A stretch of DNA of 54,215 nucleotides from a virus, in the IMG/VR virus record IMGVR_UViG_3300010151_000016, positions 1 to 54,215 of that record; one strand, written 5' to 3'. A model generated the notes under the pieces. The model saw only the letters and a program-made list of their open reading frames with translations, made no database searches and had not been told where the DNA came from. Position 1 is the stretch's first letter. Each line of letters starts with the position of its first letter. A program made the translations under genes and the position numbers. Positions 1 through 32,460 of this stretch are shown piece by piece.

Positions 1-3000
1 GGGCGTGACATCGGTGATGGGCCATTCTCACTCGATCATCTCGGCAGCGGTGAAGGGTGGAAAGGCGTGATGCCTCTTGGTCCTGCGATCTATTTCGCCA
101 CGAACAAAAACATCGCGATGAGGTATTGCAAATACAGCGACGAATCTTATTTGTACGAGGTGTCTATCCCTACTTCCGGTCTGTACAACTCAACTTGGGG
201 AACACCGATTGACCTCAAAGATCGCCTTCGAGAAGCGGTAGTCGACGCAGAAGATCTAACAGGTAAAAAGATAAAGCACTCAATGGGCGGTACTAAAGAC
301 TTGTTTAGTCTCTTGGGCAACGACGCACATGAATTCCTACGTGATGCTGGATGCACTGGCTCATGGACTAATCTTGCTGCGGGTGGCGAAGAGATTGGCG
401 TATACGATCCATCTATTATCGAAATCGTCAACAAGGAACCGATAACCTCGAAGAAAGAAGCAGCGACAATTATCCCTGAGATGGGCGACGTTATTGCAGC
501 TATCGACATGAGCAAGGATATGGTCATGAGCGCGAATGACTGGAACGAGTTCGTCGATGCGCTGTCTCCTGTCCGCTACGCGCTACAAAAGCAGAACGTC
601 CACTTCTACTTGCAACGCGAGTTTGATGCACCACACTTCCTGTTTCCGCGACAGTTTGTCGTTGGTGGTGCGGTACAGACAAGACATTCAGGTGGGTCAC
701 AAAAGCCGATAGATTATTTCATGGCGCTCACAGTCTACCTGCCGCACAAAGACAACCTAGCTTGGTCTGTAATGCGGGACGAATTGATTGCTCGAATTGG
801 ACACGAACTCATTCACGTCAAACAAAAAGAGCTATCGGGTGGAATGTCTCGGTCTCCGCATCCACACAAAAGAGATATCTATGGACCTCTCACCAGAAAA
901 GAAGACAAGAAGAAGACGAAGCAAGACCTAGATTACACGAGGAATCCACAAGAGTTCGGTGCAAAGGCGTGGAACATCGCACAAGAGTTGGCGAGTCTTA
1001 CGCCCAGTGTATTTTACCACTCTTTTAGTGAGATACCTTGGAAGCTATCCGATGAATATGAACTTCAATATGCAGAAAAGCATGGCGATGAGAAGTTCCT
1101 GAAGAAGCTCAAGCGTAAGGTGGTCGACATTCTTCAGGACATGGAGAACAAGAAGACCGAGCAGACTCAGCGCGAATGGGCAGAGCAAGACGCACTCGGC
1201 AAGACAGCGGGCAAAGAAACGCTACCTGTGAATACGATTCTCTATCACGGAACAGTCGAAGAATTAGTTGGTGAGGGGATCAGACAGAGCGTCGACGGTC
1301 TCGCTTGGTTCGCTGAGAGTCCTTCTGTCTCTAAAAGTTACATTCCGACTGCGGGTATGCGCATGCGCGTGAGCCTTAGTAAAAGTGACTACCCGATACG
1401 CCCTGACAGAGATAACAAGGAACTCATAGAGCAGTTTTTCCCTGAAATCGTTTGGGAGATAGAATACTACGAAAACAATCCGCACAGTGTTCGGTCCTGG
1501 GGCGCGAAAGATTCCGAAGGTAATTATGTAGAGCCACCTACGTCTCCACAACTCATCGAAAAACTAGAAGCGTTGGGCTATGAAGACGACCCTGATAACT
1601 CTGGGATTCGTTGGAGCCCTAAATACGGTCTTCTTCTCGGAAACGGATGGGAGGTCATGCCTGCGGACTGGCAGGAACAAGGGCAGCTTATCTCGATTCG
1701 CGTTCGTCAACCGATCAGCTTGTACGACATGACTGAAGATGAAGGCGACTTGATGAACCCGCAGCACTTAGAGATCGACAAGTTCAATAAACTTCAAGAA
1801 GCTGGATATGACGGGGTACGGATCAACGATTTCTTGCAGCACAAGGAATGGGGCAACGTCGGTCATGAGTCCGTTGGGCTCTTCGCTTCAGGTCTAGCGA
1901 AGATTGATTATCACGACATAGAACCCGCTACACATCCGAGCAGCGAAGAACTCATGGGTCGCAAGGCCACAGCGTCGGCAACGTTAGAAGCGATGTACAA
2001 TGAGATTTACGAGCGAGCTAAAGCTGCCGGTGCTAGCGACATCGGTGGAGGTAAATTGCTTATCAGTGGGCTCCTCATCAGACCACCCAAGGAAGCACTC
2101 GAAGAATATTTGAACCGGGGAAGCGAGGGAGAAGTCCGCGCATATTTCATAGAAGAACTCGAACCAGCAATCATGGAGTTCGAGTTAGGGGCAGATGAAA
2201 GGCTCAAGCAAAACGAGCACGATCTGATGGAGACGCGCTTAGAGGGGCAGGCTCATGAAGTCGAGCGAGTTGAGGATTTACCTGAAGCGGGTCCGGTGTG
2301 GGCTTGGCACGGTACGTCAACGGCATTACTAGCTCGGATAAAGTCTGAAGGTCTTGATCCTCGCTTCTCCGGTTCTACTTGGCAGGGCCAACAAGAAGGG
2401 GTGTACCTGAGTCTGACGGGTGATGTCTCAGTTTACACCAGACGTGCAGTCGCGCAGCACGGTGGCGAGCCTGTCATCCTCCGTGTCCTTGTTGACTCTG
2501 CGGACCTCATTCCCGATCCAGATGATTCGGATATCTCGTCGGGTCAGTGGCAAGTTCTTCACATGGGTTCCATTCCACCGGGTTCCATTTGGCAGATCGA
2601 TGACCGTTGGGTGAAGACCGCAGCAGGGGAAATCGTGGAGCGCAAACTCGACGAACTTGCAGGAAGCGACATCGGTAAGCGTCGTCAACTAGAAGATGCA
2701 GCGATGGAACTCTATTCAGAAGGACTAGAGGATATGGAAGTCGCAGACGCGCTAGGTCGCCGCAGGGAACGGACACGCTTGGAGCAGACACCCAACTTCC
2801 CTGGCGCTGAGTTCATTGAAGAGTTTGGCGACTACTTGGTTTACCGAATCGATACCTACGAAGCCGCGAAAAGGTTGGGCACTAGGAACTGGTGCATCGT
2901 AAGAGATGAAAAGATCTGGGATCATTATCAAGAGCACGACCTCACATTTTGGTATCACATCGACAAAGAAGAAGGACCACCAGCGAAGTACGTTGTGGGA

Positions 3001-5736
3001 GAAATGCAAAAGGACGGCATGTCCGGTTTTGAGGTGTACAGCGATCAAGATGAAATGCAAATTGAATCCGTAGAAGACGTGAGTGAATCGCACGAAGAAC
3101 GTGGCAGCACTGACATGGGTGTCGCATTTTACGAAATGCTCTTGGCCGCAATTGATGGCGACCCTCTCGCGCAAAAGAGACTGCTCATGCGACCAGGGCC
3201 AGAACATGAAGGCATGGCGGCGACCACAGATTACGTCGTCAGGAAATTACTCAAGGAGAAACGTCTGCCTCCTGAATATCTGGTAGAACTCGCTGACGGC
3301 TTCGCTGAGAACATGGATGAGTTGTCTTATTCTTATGGGCATCATACAGACACGAAAACGATCACAGATTGGTTCGAAAGTGCGGGCCAGGACTTTCCAA
3401 ATGAGCTAGAAGAAGCTCTGCACCGGTTCGCTTCGATAAAGGTCGCCGCGCCGATTGATACAATGAAGACTAAGTATCCAAACCACCTTGATGAGTTGGA
3501 TAAACTGATCGAGTCAGATCCAACCGGTCGTAGACGCTATATCGATTGGCAGATGCGGCAAGTTGTTCGGGATGTGCGGCTCGAAGAATTGATACCCCTG
3601 ACGTGGCACTATCACAGGCTGTCGAAGCACATCGGCGGTAACATTGATGCCTTTCCAGACGTGGATAGCTTGTCTAAGGCTGTAGACGCTCAGATGAAGA
3701 AGGCTGTTCCACGGACGACAACTGAAGACACGGTAGAAGACAGCAAGTTACCGGAACCAGCTTACGTGACGCATCCACCAAGAGGGACAACGTATCGAGG
3801 ACTGAGCGGTGACTATGACGTATTCGACATTAGTTCACATTCGGGAAGCGTTGCACTCGGTACAAATAAGTGGTGCATCGTTCGCGGTCAGAAGACGTGG
3901 GATGACTACGCTAAGAGAGACATCAAATTTCGCTATCTCGTAAACCGCGAGAAGGGTCTACCGGCTGAGTACGCACTTGCGATACATTTGGACGGTAAGC
4001 TCACAGAAGTCTACGGTCCAAATGACGAAATCATTGTACGTCCGCCCGAAGCCGCCAAGGAACATGGCGAAGGGGAAATGGCCGCAGACGAACTCGACAG
4101 TAAGGTTCGCAGGGCGCTCGATCCAGATTTAGTTATCATGGACCCCGCGTCTTCGTCAGGAGAAGTTCCTTTGGAAAAAGGCATTGGTTCTCATCTCACG
4201 ACTGACTCTAGGTGGATTTACGCATTGGCGAAGGCGTATGACGCGGATACTTTCATCTCCATCGCAGATAGAGCGCACGAACACGCGAAAGACGGAGACC
4301 CCGGATATAGCAGCGAGCCGGGTTTCTATAAAGCGTATGCAGAAACCATCTTGAAGGGGAACCAACGACTGAAGCGCAAATTCGATTCATGGACACGTAT
4401 GCGATACGGAGTTCCCATGCAAAAAATGTACAGGCTCTCGAAGTTGGGCCTCACGCCTGAATGGGTAGAGGATTACAAAGCCAAAGGTATCACGAGTCTT
4501 CGCGCTATGAGCAAGCTCGTGAAGCAACGTGTAACACCTTTCGAGGTGCGTGACGCGCTAGACGTTTGGATTGAAGAAGGACTCGGTACACGGGATGCAC
4601 TGAAACTTAGGGATGTCAATCGTCGGTCGGGCCAATCCAGTTTCACCGTTGAAACATACAGAGAATACGTAGACCTTGGCATCACAGACATCGATCAGAT
4701 AGTCGCGCTCGCCTCACCTTTTGGTCGTAATAGATTGATGATTACACCCGAGCATGTCCGAGGATTCAAGGCAAATGGTGTCGATAGCGTAGAACGCATG
4801 CTAGAGGTTCGAAAAGAGCTAGCTCGTGGGTCCATTGGCGCACATGCGTGGTATCAAGATGACGTGGAACGCCTATTACGCGCAGTTGAAGAATTAGAAG
4901 ACCAGAAAAGACGAAAAGAATTAGAGGCCGAACATCAACGCTTGATGCCGAAGTTGAACGAGGCTTGGGAAAAGTTGCCTGAAGGTGAAGAAAAGGAACG
5001 AATTGCCGACTTAGATGCTTCGTTCTTCAATCGTTATAGTTATTTCATTCACGGATCACAAGGCGAAGGCTCGAAAGAAGCTGCGGAGTTTGTTGCGTGG
5101 GCACGTACAATCGTTCCCGGTGCGTTTCCGAGCTTCATGACTAAGGAAGCTGCGGGTCAGTCCTATAACCTATTACGTGGGCTCACAGAGGCTTCTGCGG
5201 ACTACGATTCTCCTCCATCTGACCAACCCGAAGAAGGCGCAGAGGGACCATGGGAAGAATCGCTCCCCGTGGAGCCTATCAAGAAGCGCAAGGACGACCA
5301 CTACATAGATCGGGAAGTAGACCCCGCAATAAGACAAAAATTTACCTACGAGAACATCGGATATGGAAAGGGTCCAGAGGGGATAGGTGAGGGTGACATG
5401 ACTGGCTATTCTCCTGCGTCCGAGACGGTCGAGCCGGGTGAGGGTGCCATCGTTCGCAGCGGTGAAGTCGTAGACAGCATCAAGTTAATCCTTGGGCTTG
5501 TTCCAGAAGACGTAGAGTGGAAGAAAAGCCCGTTACGAACAAGTTTGGAGTTTCTACAGCTAGAGCCAGAAGACATCGGCGACTGGGTAGAAAACAAAGA
5601 TCTGCGCGACACTGTCGTCAAAGAGATGGAAGAAGATGAAGGTTTAGAGATGCTTGGCTTAGGGCTCATCGAGTTTGGGGTCGCAGACAACATAAAGATA
5701 GACGACGGGTCGCTGGTTTTATGGCGACATGTATAA
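1..5736 (+). CDS. Giant multidomain 'polyvalent' protein: ART-like domains, zincin, duplicated Trp-Cys domain (5' end outside window)
   Basis: The frame is open to base 1, and the 22 residues before the GTG at 67 belong to the same fold, so the true start lies upstream. Numbering from that GTG: an ADP-ribosyltransferase (ART)-like domain at about 1-125 (GPAIYFA strand); a zinc-metallopeptidase-like domain at about 140-370 with HELIH at 246-250 and a candidate third-ligand Glu in NPQEFGAKA near 297; a second ART-like domain opening with YHGT at 393-396; a third, KptA/ART-like, with WHGTS at 747-751 followed by GVYLS; and two copies of a domain centred on Trp-Cys at 942 and 1269. The rest is helical and charged. 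Large phages are known to encode such polyvalent proteins, which can be packaged and injected to modify host proteins. That role is inferred here; the domain motifs are visible. It ends eight bases into the overlap with the next possible start. Confidence 0.8.
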   Translation, partial: GRDIGDGPFSLDHLGSGEGWKGVMPLGPAIYFATNKNIAMRYCKYSDESYLYEVSIPTSGLYNSTWGTPIDLKDRLREAVVDAEDLTGKKIKHSMGGTKDLFSLLGNDAHEFLRDAGCTGSWTNLAAGGEEIGVYDPSIIEIVNKEPITSKKEAATIIPEMGDVIAAIDMSKDMVMSANDWNEFVDALSPVRYALQKQNVHFYLQREFDAPHFLFPRQFVVGGAVQTRHSGGSQKPIDYFMALTVYLPHKDNLAWSVMRDELIARIGHELIHVKQKELSGGMSRSPHPHKRDIYGPLTRKEDKKKTKQDLDYTRNPQEFGAKAWNIAQELASLTPSVFYHSFSEIPWKLSDEYELQYAEKHGDEKFLKKLKRKVVDILQDMENKKTEQTQREWAEQDALGKTAGKETLPVNTILYHGTVEELVGEGIRQSVDGLAWFAESPSVSKSYIPTAGMRMRVSLSKSDYPIRPDRDNKELIEQFFPEIVWEIEYYENNPHSVRSWGAKDSEGNYVEPPTSPQLIEKLEALGYEDDPDNSGIRWSPKYGLLLGNGWEVMPADWQEQGQLISIRVRQPISLYDMTEDEGDLMNPQHLEIDKFNKLQEAGYDGVRINDFLQHKEWGNVGHESVGLFASGLAKIDYHDIEPATHPSSEELMGRKATASATLEAMYNEIYERAKAAGASDIGGGKLLISGLLIRPPKEALEEYLNRGSEGEVRAYFIEELEPAIMEFELGADERLKQNEHDLMETRLEGQAHEVERVEDLPEAGPVWAWHGTSTALLARIKSEGLDPRFSGSTWQGQQEGVYLSLTGDVSVYTRRAVAQHGGEPVILRVLVDSADLIPDPDDSDISSGQWQVLHMGSIPPGSIWQIDDRWVKTAAGEIVERKLDELAGSDIGKRRQLEDAAMELYSEGLEDMEVADALGRRRERTRLEQTPNFPGAEFIEEFGDYLVYRIDTYEAAKRLGTRNWCIVRDEKIWDHYQEHDLTFWYHIDKEEGPPAKYVVGEMQKDGMSGFEVYSDQDEMQIESVEDVSESHEERGSTDMGVAFYEMLLAAIDGDPLAQKRLLMRPGPEHEGMAATTDYVVRKLLKEKRLPPEYLVELADGFAENMDELSYSYGHHTDTKTITDWFESAGQDFPNELEEALHRFASIKVAAPIDTMKTKYPNHLDELDKLIESDPTGRRRYIDWQMRQVVRDVRLEELIPLTWHYHRLSKHIGGNIDAFPDVDSLSKAVDAQMKKAVPRTTTEDTVEDSKLPEPAYVTHPPRGTTYRGLSGDYDVFDISSHSGSVALGTNKWCIVRGQKTWDDYAKRDIKFRYLVNREKGLPAEYALAIHLDGKLTEVYGPNDEIIVRPPEAAKEHGEGEMAADELDSKVRRALDPDLVIMDPASSSGEVPLEKGIGSHLTTDSRWIYALAKAYDADTFISIADRAHEHAKDGDPGYSSEPGFYKAYAETILKGNQRLKRKFDSWTRMRYGVPMQKMYRLSKLGLTPEWVEDYKAKGITSLRAMSKLVKQRVTPFEVRDALDVWIEEGLGTRDALKLRDVNRRSGQSSFTVETYREYVDLGITDIDQIVALASPFGRNRLMITPEHVRGFKANGVDSVERMLEVRKELARGSIGAHAWYQDDVERLLRAVEELEDQKRRKELEAEHQRLMPKLNEAWEKLPEGEEKERIADLDASFFNRYSYFIHGSQGEGSKEAAEFVAWARTIVPGAFPSFMTKEAAGQSYNLLRGLTEASADYDSPPSDQPEEGAEGPWEESLPVEPIKKRKDDHYIDREVDPAIRQKFTYENIGYGKGPEGIGEGDMTGYSPASETVEPGEGAIVRSGEVVDSIKLILGLVPEDVEWKKSPLRTSLEFLQLEPEDIGDWVENKDLRDTVVKEMEEDEGLEMLGLGLIEFGVADNIKIDDGSLVLWRHV

Positions 5737-5749
5737 GACGAGGAATCAC

Positions 5750-7333
5750 ATGGTTACTGAAGCACAAAAGAAACGACGAGATCACAGACGCTTAAAGACG
5801 TATTCAAAGATCGGGCAAGCCCTGAAATGGAATATCGGACAGGGTGACGTCGACACTGGCGGGATGTTGGTCGGCGACGGACACCCCGGTATTGCCGGAA
5901 TTATGGCTGTGCGTGACGCGCTTGGCGGTTTCGATCTAGGTGGAGAGCTTGAAGCTCGATATGCGGGCATGACCCGTACATCAGAGCACGGGGCGCACGG
6001 CTTCGGTGACGAGGGTGAGGGTGATGGGATTGTACGTATCACCGCATCGATTCGTACTCCATCAGGTGTCAAAGTCCATTTCGACGTGCCGTTAGTCATC
6101 ACAGCAGGTCGGATCTTGCCCCCTAGCGTCCTCGTCCATGAGGGCACACCTCACATTCTCGCACAATCGACCTTTGATGCATTAGTCATGCCAGGAACGT
6201 TTCATCAACCGATTCCGAGACGGTCTACAATGTATTCGCCTGACGAGGCGGAAGGTGCGCAAGAGTCTGTCGTTCGACCCAAGACGCATTTGTACACCGT
6301 CGCTCGACTGGGCGGAAAGACCGCTGATGCCGAAGAATATATCGATCCTGCGGAACGCGAGTGCGAGTCGTTTTGTGTCGGTAGCGAAAAGAAACTCATT
6401 GAGGATTGTCGAGTAAGTGATCGAGGAGGTCGAACATATGACCTCTCAAAAGGATTCAAAGTCAAGATTCTCAAGGATATGTCAGGCGATGGATCGCAGT
6501 ACGAAGTCAAAGACGAAGACGGTGACATTTTTGTCATACCTGGCAAGTCCCTTACGAAGCAGGGCTCCCGAGAGGTAGCTCCCAAGCGCCCTTTTGACCG
6601 GACGGCAGCCGATCCTGAAGAAGGTGGTCCTATGGTAGTAGGAGGCACGCCGCCTTCAGTGGAAGAACTACAGCAACAGTCTGAAGCCATAGGCGGCCTC
6701 CAAGAATCCATACAACAGTTTGAGGAAGGTAGAGAACCAAGTCCCGATGAGGCTCCTCCTATGCAGCCCGAAACCGCAGACATGTCAGGGGTAATTGGAC
6801 AGGATGTCAGCCCAGATTTGAAGACCGTGAGCGGGGCCTTTGCAACTGCCAAGCTGCCTCTCCCATTGAAATTTACGTTTGCAGAAGTAGGTCAAGCGGT
6901 TGAAACAAGAGAAGGTGGACAGCACGCAGAGGTTGGAGATGCAATCATGACGGGCACAGAGGGCGAACGGTGGCCTATTCCTCGACAAACCTTTGAGGAA
7001 ACCTATGATGTATTAGAGCCCGGAGTAGCAGCGAAAAAAGATATTCCCGTACATGCTAAGCAGATGGACGAGCCCTTTTCAGTGAAACCACCTTGGTCCG
7101 ACACGGCGCTGCAAGGAGAAGCAGGAGATTATCTGGTTCAGTACGGTCCAGGTGATTACGGCACTGTTGGGCGGGAGATATTTGGGAAAACATACAAACA
7201 AGGATCTCGTGAGGAAGTGTTCGGTGCGCCTGATGAAAGAGAAACTGCGCTCGAAGCTGAGCGTCATCTGCTAACACGGGATGATACTGTACGTGCGCCT
7301 CCAGATCGGCAGGACACGTCAGTTAATGAGTAG
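5750..7333 (+). CDS. Large acidic protein of unknown function upstream of terminase
   Basis: I do not recognise the family. The ATG at 5750 is preferred because GACGAGG lies about 7 bases upstream; an in-frame ATG at 5729 overlaps the previous gene. The N-terminal third is Gly-rich with alternating strands, and residues about 100-140 look like a beta-rich fold (VKVHFDVPLVIT). The middle, about 285-360, is acidic, Pro/Gln-rich and probably disordered. The C-terminal part carries repeated short motifs such as YLVQYGPGDYGTV. Lys-Thr-Ala at about 190-192 and Arg-Thr-Ala-Ala near 285 match the possible processing motif seen in neighbouring head proteins. Its place between the giant protein and terminase suggests a virion-associated role, which is inference. 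Confidence 0.65.
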   Translation: MVTEAQKKRRDHRRLKTYSKIGQALKWNIGQGDVDTGGMLVGDGHPGIAGIMAVRDALGGFDLGGELEARYAGMTRTSEHGAHGFGDEGEGDGIVRITASIRTPSGVKVHFDVPLVITAGRILPPSVLVHEGTPHILAQSTFDALVMPGTFHQPIPRRSTMYSPDEAEGAQESVVRPKTHLYTVARLGGKTADAEEYIDPAERECESFCVGSEKKLIEDCRVSDRGGRTYDLSKGFKVKILKDMSGDGSQYEVKDEDGDIFVIPGKSLTKQGSREVAPKRPFDRTAADPEEGGPMVVGGTPPSVEELQQQSEAIGGLQESIQQFEEGREPSPDEAPPMQPETADMSGVIGQDVSPDLKTVSGAFATAKLPLPLKFTFAEVGQAVETREGGQHAEVGDAIMTGTEGERWPIPRQTFEETYDVLEPGVAAKKDIPVHAKQMDEPFSVKPPWSDTALQGEAGDYLVQYGPGDYGTVGREIFGKTYKQGSREEVFGAPDERETALEAERHLLTRDDTVRAPPDRQDTSVNE

Positions 7334-9317
7334 TTATTTCAACACTCTGAAGACTGCGGTTGGTGGTGCGATTAACATTGATGGATCGGCTAACAAGGTA
7401 GTCGATAAAGAACTCGCAGACATAAGAGTCAGTGCGCCCAACGCAATCGAATGGATTGTTGGGCGGGACTGGTGCAACGTACCTTCGACATACAAAATGT
7501 GGAGACAGTACGAATGTATCCGCGATGTCTTTCAGCTTCGATGCCCCATCTGCAATTCGGGCGACGGCTCATGTTGGGGCAAAACACAAACAGAACTAGA
7601 GGATGAACTCCTTCTCGTTTGGTCTGAAGACTTTCAAGAAGACGTCTGCCCGAAGTGTAATACTACTCGGTCACAACTCACCGAAGACGAAATCGTAAAA
7701 TCGTATAATATGCTCCATGCTGTCGTCGGGATGCGCAGCGGCAAGAGTGTCATGGCAGGGCTCATAGGAACCTACGTCGAACACAAGTGCTTGTCCTTAG
7801 CTTGGAACCATCCAGAGGGATTGCAGGGCTATCTCGACATGCCTGCTGCGGAGCAACTAGAGATAACGTTTCTCGCTTCTACAGATACACAGAGCTTCGA
7901 TACCATCTGGGCGAAATACCGAAACTATCGCGCAGCTTCGCCTTGGTTCAGAAAAGCAATCCCTTGGATTAAGGGCCAAGAAACGTCGCAGGCAACTCCA
8001 CCGGGTATGAAGCCTTGGCGTTATGATGAAGGTGACAAGCGAATACGCAACGAAATGCCAGGTGTCCGTCTGACCACAAATTCATTGAATTCAAACTCGG
8101 GCGGAATCGTAGGTCGTACACGTATCGGCTCATTTGCAGATGAGATCTCTCGCATGAAACAGACAGAGTCCGCACAGTCTGCATCTGAAATCTATCGAGG
8201 TCTCGAAAACTCTTTACGTACTGTGCGCTCATGCGCTCGGCGTGGCAACCTACTCCCGTGGCTGGGACTTATGGTGAGCGTGTCGAGCCCGATTAGCGAC
8301 GAAGACAAGGGCATGGAACTTTTGCGAATCGGTCAGTCTGGTCGTGTGAAAGGTATGATGGCTATCCATTCCGCGACCTGGAATTTCAACCCACTGGAGC
8401 CACGGGAGCATTTCGATGACGAATTTGCGAAAGATCCGGTGGGTGCTGAGCGTGATTTTGGCGCACACCCTCCGAAAGCTGCGCATCCTTTGATCCATGA
8501 CGAAGAAAGGTTTATCACATCGTCTATTGATCATGAGGCAGAACAATCCGCTACGCTGTCTACGATTACATTCGACGACGATCTCGGACAAAGTTATGTG
8601 GCCCCACAACTGGATTCATGTAGCCTCGTGCTCGATCATGCGCCTCGCTATGTTGCGTGTGATGCAGGTAAGAATTTCGATGCGTTCGCGATTGCGTGTG
8701 CCCATGGAGAGCAGCGCGGAAGTACATGGGTAACAGTGTTTGATTTTGTGTATCGCATTGTTCCGCCGAAAGGCACTGAAGTCCACTTCGATAGCTTCTA
8801 TGATGTCTTGGGTAAGCTACGCGATAAGATGCCTATCGTACAGGTAGAGTTCGACCGCTGGAATTCAATTCACTTAATCCAAAAGCTACGGCAACTCGGT
8901 GTTCGATCTGAACAAGTGTCTACGAAAACAAAAGACTTCCTGAATTTCGCGCAAGACGCTATGATTGGACGTGTTGCATTACTGCCACCAACTGAAGCCG
9001 ACGAGTCTGCCGAACCACCCTTGATGTCAGGCGCGGGTGTTGCGTTGTACGAATTGCAACGTCTCGAACGCGATCCTGTTTCCGACAAAGTATTCAATCC
9101 GCGAAAGGGGGAACGTCGCGGCTATAACTCAGACGACACCGCACAAGTCATCGTCCACTGCCACAAAATGATCCAGGGCCTAGGATACACCAAGAAAGCT
9201 GAAGACCGAACGAAATCTGCGCGAAGGGCTCGCGCCGAGGCCGGAAGTCTTCAGTGGGAAGGACAGCTTCACCGCGTACAGCAGCGTGGGGGAACAAGCA
9301 TGGGACGAGGTTGGTGA
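7326..9317 (+). CDS. terL: Terminase large subunit
   Basis: This is the ATP-driven packaging motor and genome-cutting nuclease that docks on the portal. Residues 135-141 form a Walker A-like loop (GMRSGKS). The C-terminal half has the RNase H-like nuclease acids: Asp446 in VACDAG, Asp510 in VEFDRW and Asp603/604 in NSDDTA. A zinc-ribbon-like insertion (C73-x2-C76, C108-x2-C111) sits before the ATPase. I chose the ATG at 7326, an 8-base overlap with the preceding stop; an in-frame ATG at 7281 would add 15 residues. Total about 663 residues, within the usual TerL range. No small terminase subunit is evident nearby. Confidence 0.95.
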   Translation: MSSYFNTLKTAVGGAINIDGSANKVVDKELADIRVSAPNAIEWIVGRDWCNVPSTYKMWRQYECIRDVFQLRCPICNSGDGSCWGKTQTELEDELLLVWSEDFQEDVCPKCNTTRSQLTEDEIVKSYNMLHAVVGMRSGKSVMAGLIGTYVEHKCLSLAWNHPEGLQGYLDMPAAEQLEITFLASTDTQSFDTIWAKYRNYRAASPWFRKAIPWIKGQETSQATPPGMKPWRYDEGDKRIRNEMPGVRLTTNSLNSNSGGIVGRTRIGSFADEISRMKQTESAQSASEIYRGLENSLRTVRSCARRGNLLPWLGLMVSVSSPISDEDKGMELLRIGQSGRVKGMMAIHSATWNFNPLEPREHFDDEFAKDPVGAERDFGAHPPKAAHPLIHDEERFITSSIDHEAEQSATLSTITFDDDLGQSYVAPQLDSCSLVLDHAPRYVACDAGKNFDAFAIACAHGEQRGSTWVTVFDFVYRIVPPKGTEVHFDSFYDVLGKLRDKMPIVQVEFDRWNSIHLIQKLRQLGVRSEQVSTKTKDFLNFAQDAMIGRVALLPPTEADESAEPPLMSGAGVALYELQRLERDPVSDKVFNPRKGERRGYNSDDTAQVIVHCHKMIQGLGYTKKAEDRTKSARRARAEAGSLQWEGQLHRVQQRGGTSMGRGW

Positions 9318-9791: not shown

Positions 9792-10115
9792 ATGCGATTA
9801 ATAGCGGTAACAGATGGTGATTCATCGATGGACATCGTCGAACTCACTGGCGAGAAACGTCGCGTTTGTACAAGGAGTCTCGAATTCCTCCGTGACGCGG
9901 TGGTCCTTTACTGGGAAAGGCTACCTACGGTCATGGTCAATGCCGACAGGCAAACATGGCGAGCGACATGCGATCTTCGGACCTATGCTTCAGATCAAGA
10001 ATACAATCCCGAGGAAGACGTTGATGTGAATCACATGGTCCGTGTGCATCATCGAGCCAGCATAAGTAAGACAGGATATCCGTTCAGCCCCAGCAGTTTT
10101 AGTCATCATGCGTAA
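9792..10115 (+). CDS. Small protein of unknown function
   Basis: A 107-residue protein, not recognised. The first half alternates hydrophobic and polar residues like a small beta-rich domain (MRLIAVTDGD, then MDIVEL); the C-terminal tail is His/Ser-rich. It starts 31 bases after the ABA-sandwich gene without a clear ribosome-binding site. Its stop overlaps the start of the methyltransferase by eight bases, which supports co-translation and a real gene. Confidence 0.55.
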   Translation: MRLIAVTDGDSSMDIVELTGEKRRVCTRSLEFLRDAVVLYWERLPTVMVNADRQTWRATCDLRTYASDQEYNPEEDVDVNHMVRVHHRASISKTGYPFSPSSFSHHA

Positions 10116-10953: not shown

Positions 10954-11143
10954 AGTTTACGCCACTGTCGAAGAAGCCGAACGCGCCATAAAGCTCTCTG
11001 TTCTCATGGAAGAGGGGATTCTCGACAAGGACGACATCGTTTCTGACGAGGATATAGACACCTATTACAGAGGACTCACCAATTTCCGGCGATTGAGGGA
11101 TCTCGTGCGCAAGTATAGCAGTGAGACAAAATGCGACGAATAA
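10943..11143 (+). CDS. Small helical protein of unknown function
   Basis: A 66-residue, charged and probably all-helical protein, not recognised. It starts at a GTG inside the last codons of the methyltransferase (11-base overlap) and ends inside the start of the HAD gene. The tight chaining on both sides is the main support. The ribosome-binding site is weak. Confidence 0.5.
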   Translation: MVNKVYATVEEAERAIKLSVLMEEGILDKDDIVSDEDIDTYYRGLTNFRRLRDLVRKYSSETKCDE

Positions 11144-11925
11144 AAAGTCATATAGTAGAACCGGGAGTCGAGGATAAACCGGCAGCGATGAAATCCCGGT
11201 TACGGTATGAACACACTACGACTATCGCCGATCCTCTTTCGAAGGGCGTAGGTAATGACGGTGTGGGTGGCCCTGATGCAGAAGCGCGTCGTGTCGAAGG
11301 TGACATGGGAGAAAGCATAACGAGCTTGACCGATGAGCCACGGGGCAGTCGCGCTACAGATGGACCTGTACTGGGACCGAGATCTGAAAGTCAGGACGAA
11401 GAAACGGTGCGTATGGGGCAGAAAGTTTCTCCCATGATTGCCATTGACCTCGACGGCACCATATTGGATGAGATCGATGTTGATACGAGCGAAGGTGAAT
11501 TTGGCGCACCGATACCAGGCGCAATCGAAGCACTTGGCGCACTCAAGGACTTAGGCTGGAAAATCATTATATGGACGGCTCGGCTCTCTTTCGCTCCTGA
11601 CGAAGACACACGAGACGAGTGGATCGAGGAAATCGCAGAGTACCTAGGTAGTCAGAACATACCCTTTGATGATATTGCAATTGAGAAGCCTCCCGCCGAC
11701 GTGTTCATAGATAACAAGCAAGTTGTGCAATTCGATGGAGACTGGGATGAGGTTGTTAGAATCGTGACACAGCAATATGTAGAGCGTCCAGATGCGGGAT
11801 TGACCGAAGAAGGCGAGATTGTCGCTGCTTTCGGTGGGTTTGGTCTAGGTGACGATCAGTATCAACGCGGGTCCGACAACTTAGGTGTCACACGACATCG
11901 GGACAGAGCGTACTATGAAGATTAA
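11131..11925 (+). CDS. HAD-superfamily hydrolase with a disordered N-terminal extension
   Basis: The phosphatase core covers about residues 100-215. Motif I is DLDGT with the nucleophile Asp106 and acid Asp108, motif II is WTAR, and the late acidic motif is PPADVFIDNK. This pattern resembles small phage phosphatases acting on nucleotides or polynucleotide ends; the substrate is unknown. The first 95 residues are charged and low in complexity, so translation may instead start at Met95 (base 11413) or Met102 (base 11434). It sits between methyltransferase and portal and overlaps the portal start. Confidence 0.75.
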   Translation: MRRIKSHIVEPGVEDKPAAMKSRLRYEHTTTIADPLSKGVGNDGVGGPDAEARRVEGDMGESITSLTDEPRGSRATDGPVLGPRSESQDEETVRMGQKVSPMIAIDLDGTILDEIDVDTSEGEFGAPIPGAIEALGALKDLGWKIIIWTARLSFAPDEDTRDEWIEEIAEYLGSQNIPFDDIAIEKPPADVFIDNKQVVQFDGDWDEVVRIVTQQYVERPDAGLTEEGEIVAAFGGFGLGDDQYQRGSDNLGVTRHRDRAYYED

Positions 11926-14083
11926 AACATTTAGCCAATACGGTGATGTGCGGAAACAAGCAGCGAGCGATCCTGTAGATCTCCCACACGGACTGACTTC
12001 TGCACAACACGAGGACATCGCACAGAAGTTCGCGTCGATGGAGCCCAAGCTCGTATCGGCGGGAAGCGCAACACGCATGGACGTCTTATCAGATAAGGGT
12101 CTTTTGCCTGACGGCGCATCATGGACACGTAGCGCATCAGAGTTGGGCGGTACGAGTAGCAGCATCGGCACTGGTGGTAACGTCATGACGAACCAGATGC
12201 CGTACCAGCCTGAGTTCAGTTCCCCAGACCGCCAGCAATATCCGGTTCATCGCCTCCTTGCGAACCGATATTGGCGACTGTTTCACAAAATGGACCCGGT
12301 TATCGGTACTGCGGTTGATATGATTTCAGACATGCCGTGGTCTAACTTCGAGCTTTCTGGTATTGGCGTCGACGGCGAAATCAAAAACGGATTCGAGGAT
12401 ATGTGCAGCGAGGTAAAACTTCGTTCCTTGTTGCCGTACTTTATTCGCGAATACCTCGTTGTCGGTGAGGCATGTCCTCACATGTTTTATGATGAGAGCA
12501 CGGGCGGTTGGTCACACATTACTCTTTTGAATCCAGATCAATTAGAGATCATAGACACACCGTTTATCAAGATGGATGCCGTCGCTGAGTTCGTTCCTGA
12601 TGATCGGTTACGCAACGTTCTCACGTCTACGAATCCAATGCTAAAGCCTATTCGAGATTCGCTACCCGCAGAACTCGTCTCAAAATTAGTCGCGAGACAA
12701 AACATACCATTGTCTTCAGTGAACTTCACGCATCTCCCCAGGAAGTTGCATCCATATGATGTTCGAGGCACTTCTATCATTACGCGCATGTGGAGAGCGT
12801 TGTTCCTAGAAGACGCAATCTTCAGTGCAACGATTACAACTGCACGAAGACAAGCGTCTCCGCTCAAAGTAGCGAAGCTCGGTGATCCGGCGACAGGTTG
12901 GATTCCCGGTCCAGAACAGCAAAGCCGCTTCTTGCAACTTTTGGCTCAAGCTGAATTAGATCCCGCTGCTTGGATCTGTTACAACTACGGACTCTCCTTC
13001 GAACTCGTTGGCGTACAAGAACGCGTAATGATGATTGATCGACATTGGGAGACTATCGAACGTATCAAACTGGTCGCACTCGGTATTAATAAAGGATTCC
13101 TGCACGGAGAAGTAACGTATGCAAGTTCTGCTGCGGGACTTACAGTCTTCTTGCAACGACTCCGTGCGTTACGTGAGCACTTTGAAAACGCGTGGCTATA
13201 TCCAAAGTTCTTCAAGCAAGTTTCGGAGATGAACGGCTGGATCATGCCGAAGACCGCAGAGGTCTCGGGTCCGGGTCCGTATGTTAGAACGCGCAGGTCT
13301 GCACAGGAACTTCGTGAAGACAATCGTTACATCGTACCCAAAATCGAATGGGACAGAAGTCTCGATCCTTCGGTCGATGGGGAGATGATTAATGCCATGA
13401 ACAATCTGTCCAGCCTCGGAATCAAGTTCTCCAAGACAACGCTCATGGCAACAGTGAACCGTGACTATGAGGCCGAACTTCACCAGATGGCCGCTGACGC
13501 GAAGTTAGAGCAAGAAGTTATCGCAGACAACCCAGAGCTTATGATGGCGCTGAGTGGCGGTGAAGAAGCTGAGGGCGGTATGGGTGGCGGTATGGGTGGC
13601 GGGCCGGTCATGCCAGGAATATCGCCAAGCGACATGGGACTTGGTGACGAACCATCGCTAGAAGGTCCGCCAATGGAAGAAGGTCCGCCAATGGAAGAAG
13701 GATTAGGCGCGTCCGCAGAGGAAGGTGCCGAGCACACTAAGCAAAAGACGCGAAATAGTAAAGAAGACAGTCACGCAGATAACTTGGTTTTCGCGATAGA
13801 GACGGGGAACATAAGCGAACTCAAAGACGACCCCATATTCGGGGAATTTTTCACAGAGAAATCCGAGGAAGGAATTAAGTTTAGTGGAGACGGACAAGAG
13901 GACTGGGTACAAGTATATGATTGGTTAGTTCAGAGGGGCTGGCCCGATGAAGACTTGCGTCAGTTTGAGGCTATCCTCATAAAACGGGGTATTTTACCTA
14001 AACAAGCGTTTAGTGATGAGCTTCGTGGAATAGAGGCCCAACTATCCGTAAATTCTAAAGATTCTGGCTTTTACGTAGGCTAG
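11915..14083 (+). CDS. Portal protein
   Basis: The portal is the dodecameric ring at the packaging vertex through which DNA enters and leaves. The evidence is the 720-residue length, its place between terminase and head protease, and core segments such as YRLLANRYWRLF-like helices, a PHMFYDES wing strand, an ARRQASPLKVAKL segment and a long C-terminal helical stem. The start is uncertain: ATG 11915 gives an 11-base overlap with the HAD gene, while a GTG at 11885 would add ten residues. Lys14-Gln-Ala-Ala near the N terminus resembles the capsid protein's Lys18-Val-Ala-Ser and may be a processing site. Residues after about 540 form a Gly/Met-rich tail with tandem PPMEEG units. Confidence 0.88.
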   Translation: MKIKTFSQYGDVRKQAASDPVDLPHGLTSAQHEDIAQKFASMEPKLVSAGSATRMDVLSDKGLLPDGASWTRSASELGGTSSSIGTGGNVMTNQMPYQPEFSSPDRQQYPVHRLLANRYWRLFHKMDPVIGTAVDMISDMPWSNFELSGIGVDGEIKNGFEDMCSEVKLRSLLPYFIREYLVVGEACPHMFYDESTGGWSHITLLNPDQLEIIDTPFIKMDAVAEFVPDDRLRNVLTSTNPMLKPIRDSLPAELVSKLVARQNIPLSSVNFTHLPRKLHPYDVRGTSIITRMWRALFLEDAIFSATITTARRQASPLKVAKLGDPATGWIPGPEQQSRFLQLLAQAELDPAAWICYNYGLSFELVGVQERVMMIDRHWETIERIKLVALGINKGFLHGEVTYASSAAGLTVFLQRLRALREHFENAWLYPKFFKQVSEMNGWIMPKTAEVSGPGPYVRTRRSAQELREDNRYIVPKIEWDRSLDPSVDGEMINAMNNLSSLGIKFSKTTLMATVNRDYEAELHQMAADAKLEQEVIADNPELMMALSGGEEAEGGMGGGMGGGPVMPGISPSDMGLGDEPSLEGPPMEEGPPMEEGLGASAEEGAEHTKQKTRNSKEDSHADNLVFAIETGNISELKDDPIFGEFFTEKSEEGIKFSGDGQEDWVQVYDWLVQRGWPDEDLRQFEAILIKRGILPKQAFSDELRGIEAQLSVNSKDSGFYVG
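13577..13702 (+). repeat. Short tandem repeats in the portal C-terminal tail
   Basis: Two short in-frame repeats: GGTATGGGTGGC units around 13577-13602 (Gly-Met-Gly-Gly) and an exact tandem of GAAGGTCCGCCAATG around 13661-13696 (Glu-Gly-Pro-Pro-Met). They encode a flexible acidic linker between the portal core and a small C-terminal domain, and could vary in copy number by slippage. Confidence 0.75.
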
Positions 14084-14146: not shown

Positions 14147-14308
14147 ATGGCAATTGAAGAAGGCTTTCGTCGTACCGGAACTGCCGAAAATTCTACATTA
14201 GGTTTAGTGTCATTGGACACGGACGATTCGCCTTCGCCGTCCCAGTCCCAGATCGATTCGTCAAGCGATGACGAGACTAAAGAAGAAGAAGACGAGCAAG
14301 ATAAATGA
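14147..14308 (+). CDS. Acidic 53-residue mini-protein between portal and protease
   Basis: An open frame from ATG 14147 encodes 53 residues with a Ser/Asp-rich middle and a run of acidic residues near the C terminus (DDETKEEEDEQDK). Its TGA overlaps the ATG of the following gene as ATGA, the arrangement used by many gene pairs here. No clear ribosome-binding site is visible, and no family is recognised. It could be a scaffold-like or internal head peptide. Without it the 221 bases after the portal would be an unusually long gap for this genome. Confidence 0.45.
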   Translation: MAIEEGFRRTGTAENSTLGLVSLDTDDSPSPSQSQIDSSSDDETKEEEDEQDK

Positions 14309-17070
14309 GCTTCTATAAAATCGGCAAAGTTGAATCGCTCGCGACGTATGACGTAGATAGCGAAGGTCATATTCGATCTGCGGCACAAGATTCCGATTCA
14401 CCTAACCGTTCTTATTATGCAGACGGTGCGCGAAAGATCGATGTGAACGCTATCCTCGAACGTGCTGCATCGAAATTCGATATTTCAGCCGACCCCAAAG
14501 ATTACTTGTTTGAAGCGATTCGAGCAAACACAACCAATATACCAAACGAGAACGAAGACGCATTTCATCGCGAGGAACTTCTCCGCTTCGACCGTCGTGA
14601 AGGTATGCCGGTCTACATGTCTTATACCGGAAAACCGCATCACGTAAATCACAAGACGGATAATCCGAAGACTGCACGAGGCGTTATCCTCGACGCACAC
14701 TACAATGATGACGCACCCTCTATCGCTTCTTGTCCTGGTTGCGCGTCAGACACACTAGACAAACGCGCTCGTGATGAGAGTGGTATTCATTGTCTGAAGT
14801 GTGGTGCAACAGTAAAAGACGAGTTCGTAGAGATCTTGGTCGCTGTTGACACGAGAAAAGATCCAGTATTCGCTAAAGGTGTGAGAACAGGTCAGCTAAA
14901 AGCTGGCTCAATGGGCTGTAATTGTGCGCGTACACAATGTAACGTTTGCGACCATATCGCCTACTCTCAACCGGAATTCTGCGAACACATTCGCGGAGGC
15001 AACAAAGGTACACTGTGGGCTAAATCAGCACGTGGACAATGGCAACGGGTAGAAAAGCGTTCTGCTGAACATACTCTCAAAAGGGCAGGCACGAAGTTGT
15101 CACCAGATTTTTGTTATGCGAAAGTCGGTGGCGTTGAGATTCGTAAAGCCTTTGAGCGATGTCAGGGCGTACAGTTCGACGAGTATTCTCGCGTTCATCA
15201 ACCTGCCGATCCAAAAGCAACGTCGATTGAAGTTCTACAAGCCACTGCTTCTGCATCAACGTCCTTAGAAACTGAGTCGGAACTTCTACTGCTGAAGACG
15301 CGGCTTGCTAAATTGGAGAGCAAAGTAGCTATGAAAAAAACAGCAGATGAAATTCCTCCCGGCCTGCCGCCGATGGAAGCAGACAAGACCGCAGACGAGT
15401 ATAGCTATGAAACCCCAGAAGGCGAGCACATCGTAGTCGCACCGAATCCCGATGGTGAAGGCGTTGTTATTGGACCAGAAGGAGTAAGTAGCGAACTACC
15501 TGAAGACGAATTGGCCCCCTCTATGGGCATTGATGAGTATCAAGAAGAACAACTTCCAGAGAACTCAACCGGAGAAGAGTTAGGTCTCGATCTTGGTGGC
15601 CCGTCTGAACCTGCACCTGAATCTATTGAAGATTCCCCACTTCCACCACCCCCAACAAGACGATCACCCCCGGTAGCTCCGGGTATGAGACAAGGAGCGC
15701 GTATGTTCAAGAGCAGTTACAATAAGTGGACTGTTGAAGTCACTGAGCGCGGAAATGCTCGCGTCATCGCCCCAGAAGGTGCAGTGATGTTGATCCGCGC
15801 TCGTCAAGCAAAGAAAACTGCAAGTAAGAAGGATTTTGGTAAAGAGATCTTATCGAGCTTGTTCGACGGTGGTCTCGTGAAGACTGCCAAAAAATACAAG
15901 GCGTTGATTTCGCCACGATTCGCAAGTATCACAGCCGATCCAATCGGCGATATGTCAATCAAACGTAGCGAACCTACGAATCCCGTTTCTGCTGGTGGCG
16001 ACTGCGATCAAAAAGATGGCTGTCCTCCCGCTTATTCCGGTCAATCTGCGACTGATGGTGGTGAAAGTGATGGACCTGAACGTGGAACCGGTGATTCTGT
16101 AACTGAAGCAGGTCATGCCGATCACGATAATAGAGGAGATGCAGCTACCAGTGCCCTCGAAGGTGGTATCACAGACGGACCTGAACACAAAAAGGTGAAC
16201 GTCGGAAAGGATACTCCGCTTGCAGATCCAGTGAATGATCGGGCTGCTTCGTATATCGGACGGCGCGTAGCCGCAAAAAGCTGGGCCAACGCTGACGCAG
16301 AAACGCTTCGAGAAGAAAGCTGGCTCGTAACCAAACGAGACGCTTCAGCGGATATGTACACACTTCGACGTGGTGAGGACACTTGTGAGATCGGAAACGA
16401 TGACCTCCAAGCTGCCTGGATCATGCTCGATAAGGTTGCGTTGCCTACCAGTAAAGTCGAAGATCGACTGAAGAAAATTCATGCTGCGCGAATCGCGAAG
16501 CTAGAAGATCAACAAAACGAGGCCGTGGAAGCTGGCATTTCTAAATTCATTCGAGCGTTGAAACTCGTTGCGGCTCGTCAAGCAATCAACGTAGAAGACG
16601 CACCGTTGAAAGAATCGTTAGGTGTCGCTCTCTCGAACGCTCGCGAAGTAGGTCGCGATGTCCGCACTGGACACTCGATCACCTACGAAGCCATGCCTGA
16701 AGATCTTGCTGTGCATCTCATTGAGTCTGCATGGAAAGATGGCGGTGATACCCACATCGACCAATTACTCTCTCGCGCTGCCGACCTTGCTGGACGCAGT
16801 GACGAATACTTGGCTGATGCCGAAGCTGACTTGTCAGCACGGCAGGGGTCACATCGCATCGCAACACTAACGTACAAAGAACAAGTCAGTTCTGAAGAGC
16901 GTCGAGCGGCAAGAATCCGCGAAGAAGCTCTTACAGGAAACTTGCAACTCAACACCTCGTCATCGGTAACGACTCCGGTTCCATCGAATGGGCACAATAA
17001 ATCTGCGTCTATTCGGGGAGCCTTGTCTAATACGAAGGCGGGCTTAATCAAACGTCAGTTCCAGTCCTGA
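14305..17070 (+). CDS. Prohead-protease-like protein fused to a scaffold-like region
   Basis: The N-terminal 290 residues fit the large-phage head-maturation protease pattern: a conserved His in NHKTDNPKTARG (His116), valine-rich strands, then Ser202 in SMGC as likely nucleophile, followed by a Cys/His cluster (CNC, CNVC, CEH). A rubredoxin-like pair (C143-x2-C146, C163-x2-C166) lies between His and Ser. From about 330 on it is acidic, Pro-rich and then helical, like a scaffold or core protein. Lys-Thr-Ala occurs at 345-347, 361-363, 504-506 and 526-528, mostly in linkers, possibly self-cleavage sites. It lies directly before the decoration and capsid genes, as expected for a protease-scaffold. 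The catalytic assignment is inferred from motif and position. Confidence 0.7.
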   Translation: MSFYKIGKVESLATYDVDSEGHIRSAAQDSDSPNRSYYADGARKIDVNAILERAASKFDISADPKDYLFEAIRANTTNIPNENEDAFHREELLRFDRREGMPVYMSYTGKPHHVNHKTDNPKTARGVILDAHYNDDAPSIASCPGCASDTLDKRARDESGIHCLKCGATVKDEFVEILVAVDTRKDPVFAKGVRTGQLKAGSMGCNCARTQCNVCDHIAYSQPEFCEHIRGGNKGTLWAKSARGQWQRVEKRSAEHTLKRAGTKLSPDFCYAKVGGVEIRKAFERCQGVQFDEYSRVHQPADPKATSIEVLQATASASTSLETESELLLLKTRLAKLESKVAMKKTADEIPPGLPPMEADKTADEYSYETPEGEHIVVAPNPDGEGVVIGPEGVSSELPEDELAPSMGIDEYQEEQLPENSTGEELGLDLGGPSEPAPESIEDSPLPPPPTRRSPPVAPGMRQGARMFKSSYNKWTVEVTERGNARVIAPEGAVMLIRARQAKKTASKKDFGKEILSSLFDGGLVKTAKKYKALISPRFASITADPIGDMSIKRSEPTNPVSAGGDCDQKDGCPPAYSGQSATDGGESDGPERGTGDSVTEAGHADHDNRGDAATSALEGGITDGPEHKKVNVGKDTPLADPVNDRAASYIGRRVAAKSWANADAETLREESWLVTKRDASADMYTLRRGEDTCEIGNDDLQAAWIMLDKVALPTSKVEDRLKKIHAARIAKLEDQQNEAVEAGISKFIRALKLVAARQAINVEDAPLKESLGVALSNAREVGRDVRTGHSITYEAMPEDLAVHLIESAWKDGGDTHIDQLLSRAADLAGRSDEYLADAEADLSARQGSHRIATLTYKEQVSSEERRAARIREEALTGNLQLNTSSSVTTPVPSNGHNKSASIRGALSNTKAGLIKRQFQS

Positions 17071-26538: not shown

Positions 26539-26609
26539 AATCGACCTCCTACTCAACCAAACACACGCACTAACAATGGAACTAAAGATCTGCGTAAAGG
26601 AGGTAGAAA

Positions 26610-28087: not shown

Positions 28088-28275
28088 TAGGAACAGCCTG
28101 TTTAGTTTTGAGCTTCATCGGTATCTTAGTCTTAGCGGGATTGAGAATTAGTCACACAGACGCAACATTTTTAGAGGTCGTGTATCTTTATGGCATAGAG
28201 ACATGGCTTACTTCTATATTTTTGGGGTTAGGTATCTGGTGCTTAATCAAGGAGTTTGAGCACGATGACTATTGA
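28075..28275 (+). CDS. Small two-helix membrane protein
   Basis: 66 residues with hydrophobic segments at about 3-24 and 40-60 and an acidic tail. GGAGG lies five bases before the ATG. It is embedded between two glycosyltransferases with overlaps on both sides. Function unknown; it may anchor the sugar machinery at the membrane. Confidence 0.6.
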   Translation: MRAVIGTACLVLSFIGILVLAGLRISHTDATFLEVVYLYGIETWLTSIFLGLGIWCLIKEFEHDDY

Positions 28276-32459: not shown

Positions 32460-32460
32460 C

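What the first reader, a model, noticed from the sequence alone, without database searches (positions are those of the whole stretch)
1..5736. Giant polyvalent protein with three ART-like domains, a metallopeptidase and a duplicated unnamed domain
One open frame of at least 1,911 residues carries ART-like motifs at its N terminus, at residue 393 and at residue 747, and HELIH at 246. This resembles injected polyvalent phage proteins, but the combination and the count of ART-like domains are unusual. If active, it could modify host proteins or nucleic acids as soon as DNA enters. Catalytic status of each ART domain is not proven: only the YHGT, WHGTS and GVYLS type motifs are visible.
Basis: partly seen in the sequence, partly recalled or inferred. 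Interest (0 to 1): 0.7.

Follow-up and report, generated by a model that had tools for sequence, protein, structure and literature searches.

The report
Giant multi-enzyme phage head-cassette protein
A large tailed phage seems to carry, among its head genes, one giant protein that strings together several predicted host-attack enzymes, probably packed in the virus particle and perhaps cut apart there; such proteins are known, but this one sits where the relatives we found keep a different domain.

Summary
The frame 1-5736 is real and coding, but the window starts inside it, so the N-terminus, including the first ART motif, is missing. ART3 (residues ~762-868) has the best ART support, all of it weak: PARP, RNA 2'-phosphotransferase, phage proteins annotated as ARTs. 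ART1 and ART2 match Pfam ART-PolyVal only below its cut-off. The zincin is supported by HELIH plus a downstream Glu, both kept in a 2,183-aa protein of jumbo phage Rctr197k. The duplicated domain (34% identical) models at pLDDT 78 and resembles domains of other phage proteins; sequence profiles do not confirm this. ARTs in up to 12 copies, and zincins, are already described in polyvalent proteins: the count is not unusual.

New here: the last ~75 residues are the C-terminal domain of a gene just upstream of terminase; 16 ORFs carry it, 15 with DUF192, the window's without. K-[TEV]-A-[AG] stretches lie at its domain joints; the strict form KTA[ASG] is enriched in the relatives' head protease, capsid and next-gene families, not in terminase or near portals, and hardly in the DUF192 genes. 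I infer a head-packed polyprotein cut by the head protease, as T4 Alt is; cutting, packing and injection are unshown.

The parts
1..5736 (+). giant multi-domain ORF (P0001, at least 1,911 aa; N-terminus off the window)
   Evidence: frame score best in 10 of 10 windows, the last marginally
1..438 (+). ART-like domain 1 (residues 1-146), cut by the window edge: AIYF at 29, YDPS at 135, strand-1 motif missing
   Evidence: PF18760 E 0.009 in the whole protein, 0.16 as a segment, below cut-off
454..465 (+). KEAA, putative processing site between ART1 and zincin
   Evidence: cleavage inferred
478..1185 (+). zincin-like metallopeptidase module (residues ~160-395)
   Evidence: homologous to residues 1603-1712 of a 2,183-aa Rctr197k ORF: phmmer E 4.7e-5, 1.2e-4 over the whole record; alignment
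802..816 (+). HELIH (residues 268-272); candidate third zinc ligand E318 (in NPQE) at 952-954
1201..1212 (+). KTAG, putative processing site between zincin and ART2
   Evidence: cleavage inferred
1231..1935 (+). ART-like domain 2 (residues ~411-645): YHGT 415, Trp436 in place of Tyr, YDGV 603
   Evidence: PF18760 E 0.076 over residues 575-610, below cut-off; single-sequence model pLDDT 35.7, no use
2284..2604 (+). ART-like domain 3 (residues ~762-868): H770, Y802; best supported ART
   Evidence: PARP E 0.0026, phrog_5470 RNA 2'-phosphotransferase E 0.27, tblastn E 0.1 or worse to phage proteins annotated ART or KptA, hhalign prob 94 to four phage proteins chosen because they hit
2614..2625 (+). 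KTAA, putative processing site just after ART3
   Evidence: cleavage inferred
2776..3096 (+). WC domain, copy 1 (residues 926-1032)
   Evidence: AF2 model pLDDT 78.1 from the two copies
3439..3450 (+). KVAA, putative processing site between the WC copies
   Evidence: cleavage inferred
3763..4071 (+). WC domain, copy 2 (residues 1255-1357)
5074..5085 (+). KEAA at residue 1692
   Evidence: looks helical by eye, the weakest of the six
5143..5154 (+). KEAA, putative processing site before the C-terminal region
   Evidence: cleavage inferred
5512..5730 (+). C-terminal slot domain (residues ~1838-1910), shared with DUF192 proteins at the same place in relatives
   Evidence: hmmsearch E 8.2e-6 with a profile that did not contain it; hhalign prob 96.4
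5729..7333 (+). PGDYG-containing protein; its homologues are enriched in KTA[ASG]
   Evidence: PF14083 1.4e-17; motif
7281..9317 (+). terminase large subunit
   Evidence: phrog_17415 1e-50; 50% identical to Rctr197k
11885..14083 (+). portal protein, RKQAAS near the N-terminus (KQAA at residue 24, nt 11954-11965)
   Evidence: phrog_16240 1.2e-79
14305..17070 (+). head maturation protease with a long C-terminal region holding K-x-A stretches; proposed cutter
   Evidence: phrog_18299 2.3e-27
17873..19063 (+). major capsid protein with KVAS at residue 18 (nt 17924-17935)
   Evidence: phrog_2522 5.5e-61

Best explanation
A polyvalent effector polyprotein made with the head proteins of a large tailed phage. 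The C-terminal domain shared with the slot's DUF192 proteins probably targets or anchors it during head assembly. In the prohead the phage's head protease cuts it at K-[TEV]-A-[AG] stretches into separate modules (ART1, zincin, ART2, ART3, WC copies), which stay in the capsid and enter the host with the DNA. There ART3, and perhaps ART1, would modify host proteins or nucleic acids using NAD; the zincin would cut host or phage proteins or do part of the processing. Shown: the coding frame, the duplicated domain, homology of zincin and C-terminal domain, the place among head genes, the motif enrichment. Inferred: cutting, packing, injection, every enzymatic activity.
For: Place in the head cassette. 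Zincin homology to Rctr197k including HExxH, Glu and AKAWNI. Weak but agreeing ART signals for ART3 and ART-PolyVal for ART1 and ART2. The C-terminal domain is the slot domain: E 8.2e-6, hhalign 96.4%; 16 ORFs carry it, 15 with DUF192, P0001 without; all 15 lie 463-2,685 nt upstream of the terminase ORF, 12 of 15 with a homologue of the next gene between. Motif: in 29 portal, protease and capsid proteins 'KTA.' was seen 50 times against 8.0 expected; in 30 other ORFs of 600 aa or more (P0001 included) KTA[ASG] 9 against 2.1 +- 1.4, reversed 0. In 31 nearer loci: protease family 27 against 1.9 +- 1.3 (reversed 2), capsid 5 against 0.3 (0), homologues of the next gene 7 against 0.7 (0), terminase 0 against 1.0 (1), minus-strand shadow ORFs 2 against 2.1 (3). 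P0001 has 2 KTA[ASG] (p 0.0026) and 6 K[TEVS]A[ASG] against 0.46, 0 of 5,000 shuffles; 6 of 6 lie outside the domains as I drew them (p 0.014). The zincin module is bracketed by such stretches here (152, 401) and, more loosely (KTAV, RTAA), in Rctr197k (1472, 1755). Precedent: T4 Alt is trimmed at both ends by the head protease (PMC5694885, passages).
Against: No cleavage, virion or activity data. The set K[TEVS]A[ASG] was chosen after seeing P0001, which has only two strict KTA[ASG]. A wider set, [KR][TEVQSI]A[AGS], gives 6 against 1.2 in P0001 (p 0.001) and barely separates the other window ORFs from their reversed control (11 against 9). In the protease family the reversed control of a wide set is itself raised (30 against 15 by shuffling), so part of the signal is K/A-rich sequence. 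Counts come from related proteins and are not independent. Portals of the nearer loci have no KTA[ASG] (0 against 1.0), only a looser form near the N-terminus, 11 of 25 against 4 of 25 reversed; distant portals have 4 against 1.2. Only 1 of the 15 DUF192 slot genes has KTA[ASG]. ART1 and ART2 never pass a curated cut-off; the Acinetobacter phage proteins that ART3 resembles get no ART family from Pfam themselves. No relatives of ART1-3 or WC turned up in the ORFs of 80 related loci. Domain boundaries were drawn by hand.
Confidence: 0.55

Rival explanations
1. Classical polyvalent protein: packed and injected as one chain, or self-cut by its own zincin as Iyer et al. propose, with the K-T-A stretches being ordinary linkers and no role for the head protease.
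For: N4 virion RNA polymerase is packed uncut although it carries a zincin, and zincin self-processing is the published proposal (PMC5512222 section 8). Zincin present. Strict KTA[ASG] occurs only twice in P0001 and in 1 of 15 DUF192 slot genes.
Against: The same motif is enriched, against reversed and shuffled controls, in the head protease, capsid and next-gene families but not in terminase, and similar stretches bracket the homologous zincin module in two otherwise different giants.
Confidence: 0.3
2. Chiefly a head morphogenesis or scaffold-like protein whose ART-like and zincin-like folds have no catalysis; the C-terminal slot domain does the essential work.
For: Only the C-terminal domain is found at this place in relatives, where a DUF192 protein fills the slot. 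ART2 has Trp for Tyr and no clear Asp; ART3's third residue is unclear (by eye). A PA5oct protein of WC-like predicted fold is annotated as a structural protein seen by mass spectrometry, next to terminase.
Against: HExxH and the downstream Glu of the zincin are kept in Rctr197k; H770 and Y802 of ART3 are intact; genes downstream of terminase in relatives carry other enzyme domains (pyrophosphatase, 2'-5' RNA ligase-like, GNAT).
Confidence: 0.1
3. Mis-reading: motifs by chance in an unrelated large structural protein, with no ART or zincin fold.
For: No domain passes a curated Pfam cut-off; no hit among solved structures for the whole chain; Pfam gives no ART family for the Acinetobacter phage proteins that ART3 resembles.
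Against: Zincin homology with E 4.7e-5 and 1.2e-4; PARP, RNA 2'-phosphotransferase and KptA signals on the same ART3 stretch.
Confidence: 0.05

Closest known systems
Polyvalent proteins of phages (Iyer et al. 2017, PMC5512222; section 8 and passages read)
   Same: very long chain, zincin plus several ART-like domains plus unnamed domains, encoded with head/packaging genes
   Different: sits in a slot that in relatives holds a DUF192 protein; carries K-[TEV]-A-[AG] stretches at domain joints, of a kind enriched in the phage group's head protease and capsid proteins; N-terminus unknown; ART2 lacks the Tyr of the H-Y-D clade
2,183-aa ORF of Virus Rctr197k (KX853510, feature Rctr197k_045, record 46139-52666)
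   Same: homologous zincin bracketed by KTA/RTA stretches, giant chain beside the terminase gene
   Different: directly downstream of terminase, with GNAT, a HAD-like end and a second HExxH; no sequence match to ART1-3 or WC
T4 Alt (PMC5694885, passages; clade from PMC5512222, passages)
   Same: head-packed, injected ART trimmed at both ends by the head protease
   Different: single ART of the R-S-E type, cleavage after Glu, not a polyprotein
PA5oct EST35_0205 and PcfJ-like phage proteins
   Same: similar predicted fold to the WC domain: PA5oct structural protein prob 0.96, E 0.11; best PcfJ-like row prob 0.98, E 0.11; six of the 50 rows shown are named PcfJ-like; GTxWC motif in PA5oct by eye; next to terminase in PA5oct
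   Different: no match reached E 0.001; profile comparison finds no sequence relation (hhalign prob 1.1%; the A9 profile misses P0001). That the Foldseek row is EST35_0205 is inferred from its length (482 aa), name and motif
DUF192 slot proteins of relatives
   Same: same C-terminal domain and gene position
   Different: 277-602 aa, with DUF192 instead of the ART/zincin/WC array

Membership tests
Phage polyvalent proteins | two or more unrelated effector domains in one long chain | tested here: met
   zincin homology, ART3 signals, duplicated WC domain; single domains stay below Pfam cut-offs, so this rests on several weak lines
Phage polyvalent proteins | encoded with portal/terminase packaging genes | tested here: met
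   terminase, portal, head protease and capsid genes follow
Phage polyvalent proteins | packed in the virion and injected | not testable with these tools
   no virion of this phage is at hand
ART-PolyVal (PF18760) | score above the curated cut-off of 31.2 bits | tested here: not met
   17.2 bits whole protein, 13.1 (ART1) and 14.2 (ART2) as segments; ART1 is truncated
ART H-Y-D clade | His in strand 1, Tyr in strand 2, Asp in strand 5 | tested here: inconclusive
   by eye: ART1 Y31 and D136, His off the window; ART2 H416, Trp436, no clear Asp; ART3 H770, Y802, third residue unclear
ART fold | ART fold in a predicted structure | tested here: inconclusive
   ART2 single-sequence model pLDDT 35.7; ART1 and ART3 not modelled
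Zincin metallopeptidase | HExxH plus a downstream Glu, kept in a homologue | tested here: met
   HELIH 268-272 and E318; HELVH and NPQE in Rctr197k; fold not modelled
PcfJ (PF14284) | match to the Pfam model | tested here: not met
   no match in the window at E 10
PcfJ-like fold | same fold as PcfJ-like phage proteins | tested here: inconclusive
   Foldseek prob up to 0.98 but E 0.11 or worse for PcfJ-like rows; sequence profiles of the PA5oct group negative
Head-protease substrate | cleavage at a site shared with capsid and protease | not testable with these tools
   motif enrichment only

The most novel reading that the evidence does not exclude
In this group of large phages, host-attack enzymes are made as polyproteins written in the same cleavage code (around K-T-A-A) that the head protease uses on its own scaffold-like tail and on the capsid protein, so that capsid maturation itself frees the injected enzymes, and modules flanked by the code can be swapped in, as happened here when a DUF192 module was replaced by ARTs, a zincin and WC domains.
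Probability: 0.35. Interest if true: 0.75.

Novelty: new member of a known kind. Interest (0 to 1): 0.45.

Why it matters
If the modules are freed by the head protease, capsid maturation doubles as the step that releases injected enzymes, and a short code would help to find and delimit injected effectors in large phages from sequence alone. It also gives a clear case of module replacement at one head-gene slot, next to terminase.

Tried and rejected
Viral-contig scans for relatives of the whole protein, the zincin and ART3 as single queries, of the WC pair and of the zincin pair found none; nor did genome contigs with the terminase alignment or the zincin pair. The scans start from short peptide patterns, so distant relatives can be missed. 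ART1, ART2 and WC gave nothing useful against phages by tblastn; P0001 gave nothing among solved structures, ART3 one meaningless hit at E 1.7. ART3 also touched DUF7457 at E 0.049. The single-sequence fold of ART2 failed. PDB matches of the WC model are GNAT-like but at Z 5.2 or less, within chance for such models. The PcfJ link was not confirmed by sequence. ART-PolyVal occurs in 0 of the first 12 related records and in 1 of 50 further ones, below cut-off. I considered KTA[ASG] alone as proof of processing and rejected it: near portals do not show it, P0001 has only two strict copies, and 1 of 15 DUF192 slot genes has one.

Not in print: the searches returned no paper that, by its listing and the passages I read, links polyvalent proteins to a K-T-A head-protease code. 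The library lacks most subscription journals, and most listed papers were not opened.

Full report
What is there. The window is a whole virus record of 54,215 bases. The frame from base 1 to the stop at 5736 (1,911 codons) is open at the 5' edge and scores best of six frames in 10 of 10 windows by codon usage, the last one marginally. The protein's start is therefore unknown.

Surroundings. Downstream on the same strand lie a PGDYG protein (5729-7333, PF14083 1.4e-17), terminase large subunit (7281-9317), a Dam-like methyltransferase (10108-10953; PF02086 2.1e-35), a HAD-like protein (11131-11925; PF00702 0.0018, below cut-off), portal, head maturation protease and capsid protein. The terminase is 50% identical to that of Virus Rctr197k, a 197-kb record.

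Domains. ART1 (1-146, cut), zincin (~160-395), ART2 (~411-645), ART3 (~762-868), two WC copies (926-1032, 1255-1357), a helix-rich stretch (by eye), and a C-terminal domain (1838-1910). ART1 and ART2 reach Pfam ART-PolyVal only below its cut-off. ART3 reaches PARP (E 0.0026, below cut-off), phrog_5470, RNA 2'-phosphotransferase (E 0.27), and phrog_13493 (8e-5, function unknown). By tblastn, at E 0.1 or worse, it touches 63 phage records, 50 of them Acinetobacter, some annotated 'putative ADP-ribosyl transferase', and a clostridial phage KptA. That KptA is a true family member (PF01885 2.6e-47); two Acinetobacter proteins and one Vibrio protein scanned get no ART family above cut-off, the nearest being Arr-ms at E 0.12 for the Vibrio one. 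hhalign of ART3 to four such proteins gives prob 94 and BLASTP to the KptA E 3e-9 for that single pair; all were picked because they hit, so both figures flatter. The zincin has no Pfam hit but is homologous to residues 1603-1712 of a 2,183-aa Rctr197k ORF (E 4.7e-5 among 893 ORFs; 1.2e-4 over the whole record), with HELIH/HELVH, NPQE and AKAWNI in common.

The duplicated domain. The two copies folded together give a good model (pLDDT 78.1, two sequences). Foldseek against viral models gives no match at E 0.001 or better; the first are uncharacterised phage proteins (best E 0.007, prob 1.00), six of the 50 rows shown are named PcfJ-like (best E 0.11), and rank 11 is a structural protein of phage PA5oct (E 0.11, prob 0.96). 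By length, name and motif that is EST35_0205, marked as seen by mass spectrometry, directly after EST35_0204, which the RefSeq copy calls terminase large subunit. By eye both share GTxWC. But profile comparison does not support homology (prob 1.1%), and PF14284 has no match in the window. PDB matches are GNAT-like at Z 5.2 or less.

The slot. Terminase-based scans gave 5, 10 and then 79 loci (the last kept the best 80 of 180 matches). A profile of the C-terminal domain from eight relatives (A6) finds P0001 at E 8.2e-6 without having contained it (hhalign 96.4%). After iteration over 44 window ORFs and the 5,017 ORFs of 80 loci, 16 ORFs carry the domain; 15 also carry DUF192 and P0001 does not; none of the 44 window ORFs does. 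All 15 lie 463-2,685 nt upstream of the terminase ORF, and in 12 of 15 a homologue of the window's next gene lies between, as in the window. So a DUF192 module was replaced by the effector array, or lost; since the N-terminus is off the window, a DUF192 further upstream is not excluded. Of 38 proteins of relatives scanned (25 downstream of terminase, 13 upstream), 8 carry inorganic pyrophosphatase, 5 a 2'-5' RNA ligase-like domain, 3 GGACT, 2 GNAT, 13 DUF192 (the answer does not say which protein carries which beyond the first).

The K-T-A stretches. Reading P0001 I saw KEAA, KTAG, KTAA, KVAA and KEAA between domains. To test this apart from P0001 I counted short patterns in 29 portal, protease and capsid proteins: 'KTA.' (50 seen, 8.0 expected) ranks eighth, after two glycine runs and five strings seen 10-13 times each that I take to be conserved portal positions. 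In 30 other ORFs of 600 aa or more (P0001 and homologues of the next gene included) KTA[ASG] was seen 9 times against 2.1 +- 1.4, reversed 0; K[TEVS]A[ASG] 26 against 9.4 +- 3.3, reversed 7. In 31 nearer loci, KTA[ASG]: protease family (20 proteins) 27 against 1.9, reversed 2; capsid (14) 5 against 0.3, reversed 0; next-gene homologues (26) 7 against 0.7, reversed 0; unclassified ORFs of 500 aa or more (68) 9 against 3.5, reversed 1; terminase (31) 0 against 1.0; portal (30) 0 against 1.0; homologues of the 17102 protein (17) 0 against 0.4; minus-strand shadow ORFs (533) 2 against 2.1; the window's other 39 ORFs 2 against 1.0. Distant portals (29) have 4 against 1.2. Terminase has KTA without the fourth residue 14 times, 12 of them in GKTA, which I take to be its ATP-binding loop. 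P0001 has 2 strict copies (p 0.0026) and 6 of the looser form against 0.46 (0 of 5,000 shuffles); the looser form was chosen after the fact. A still wider form gives 6 against 1.2 (p 0.001), and 11 against 9 reversed in the other window ORFs. All 6 lie outside the domains I drew (p 0.014). In Rctr197k the homologous zincin is bracketed by KTAV (1472) and RTAA (1755). Only 1 of the 15 DUF192 slot genes has a strict copy.

Reading. Giant phages cut head and injected proteins with a head protease at a short code (SPN3US after AxE; T4 also after Glu; PMC10052503 and PMC5694885, passages), and T4 Alt, an injected ART, is trimmed at both ends. I propose the same here with a different code and a polyprotein. 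The published alternative is self-cutting by zincins (PMC5512222 section 8). Neither is tested. PMC9503650 (passages) already notes ARTs beside terminase and portal genes in many phages, which supports the general picture and lowers the novelty. PMC7824862 (passages) and PMC7412058 (passages) gave context only; of PMC12810830 I saw the outline and abstract.

Noticed in passing
window 25348-33375: A stretch, lower in GC from about 28 kb on, with three glycosyltransferase-like genes (25348-26538, 26918-28087, 28256-31105) and, on the minus strand, a polysaccharide-biosynthesis epimerase (32461-33375, PF02719 1.6e-39).
   Followed up: no
window 10108-10953: Dam-like adenine methyltransferase between terminase and portal (TIGR00571 9.1e-46); phmmer with it found no homologue at E 1e-4 among the ORFs of the first 12 related loci.
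   Followed up: partly
window 4459-4830 (residues ~1487-1610): Helix-rich stretch with about four ~33-aa units of the form [LIV]TPExV...GI.S...M, a possible helical repeat; seen by eye only.
   Followed up: no
L012 11901-17090; L003 12583-15267; L002 11962-13857: Multi-domain proteins downstream of terminase in relatives: 2'-5' RNA ligase-like with two HExxH (L012), pyrophosphatase (L003), pyrophosphatase plus GGACT (L002); perhaps further injected-enzyme sets.
   Followed up: partly
L010, L022-L027, L054-L059, L064, L067, L068: DUF192 without the C-terminal slot domain in 16 ORFs of the 80 loci: DUF192 recurs near head genes of these large phages.
   Followed up: no
window 14305-17070: The head protease ORF is 921 aa, with the protease match at its N-terminus and a long region holding K-x-A stretches, as if protease and scaffold were one polyprotein.
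   Followed up: partly
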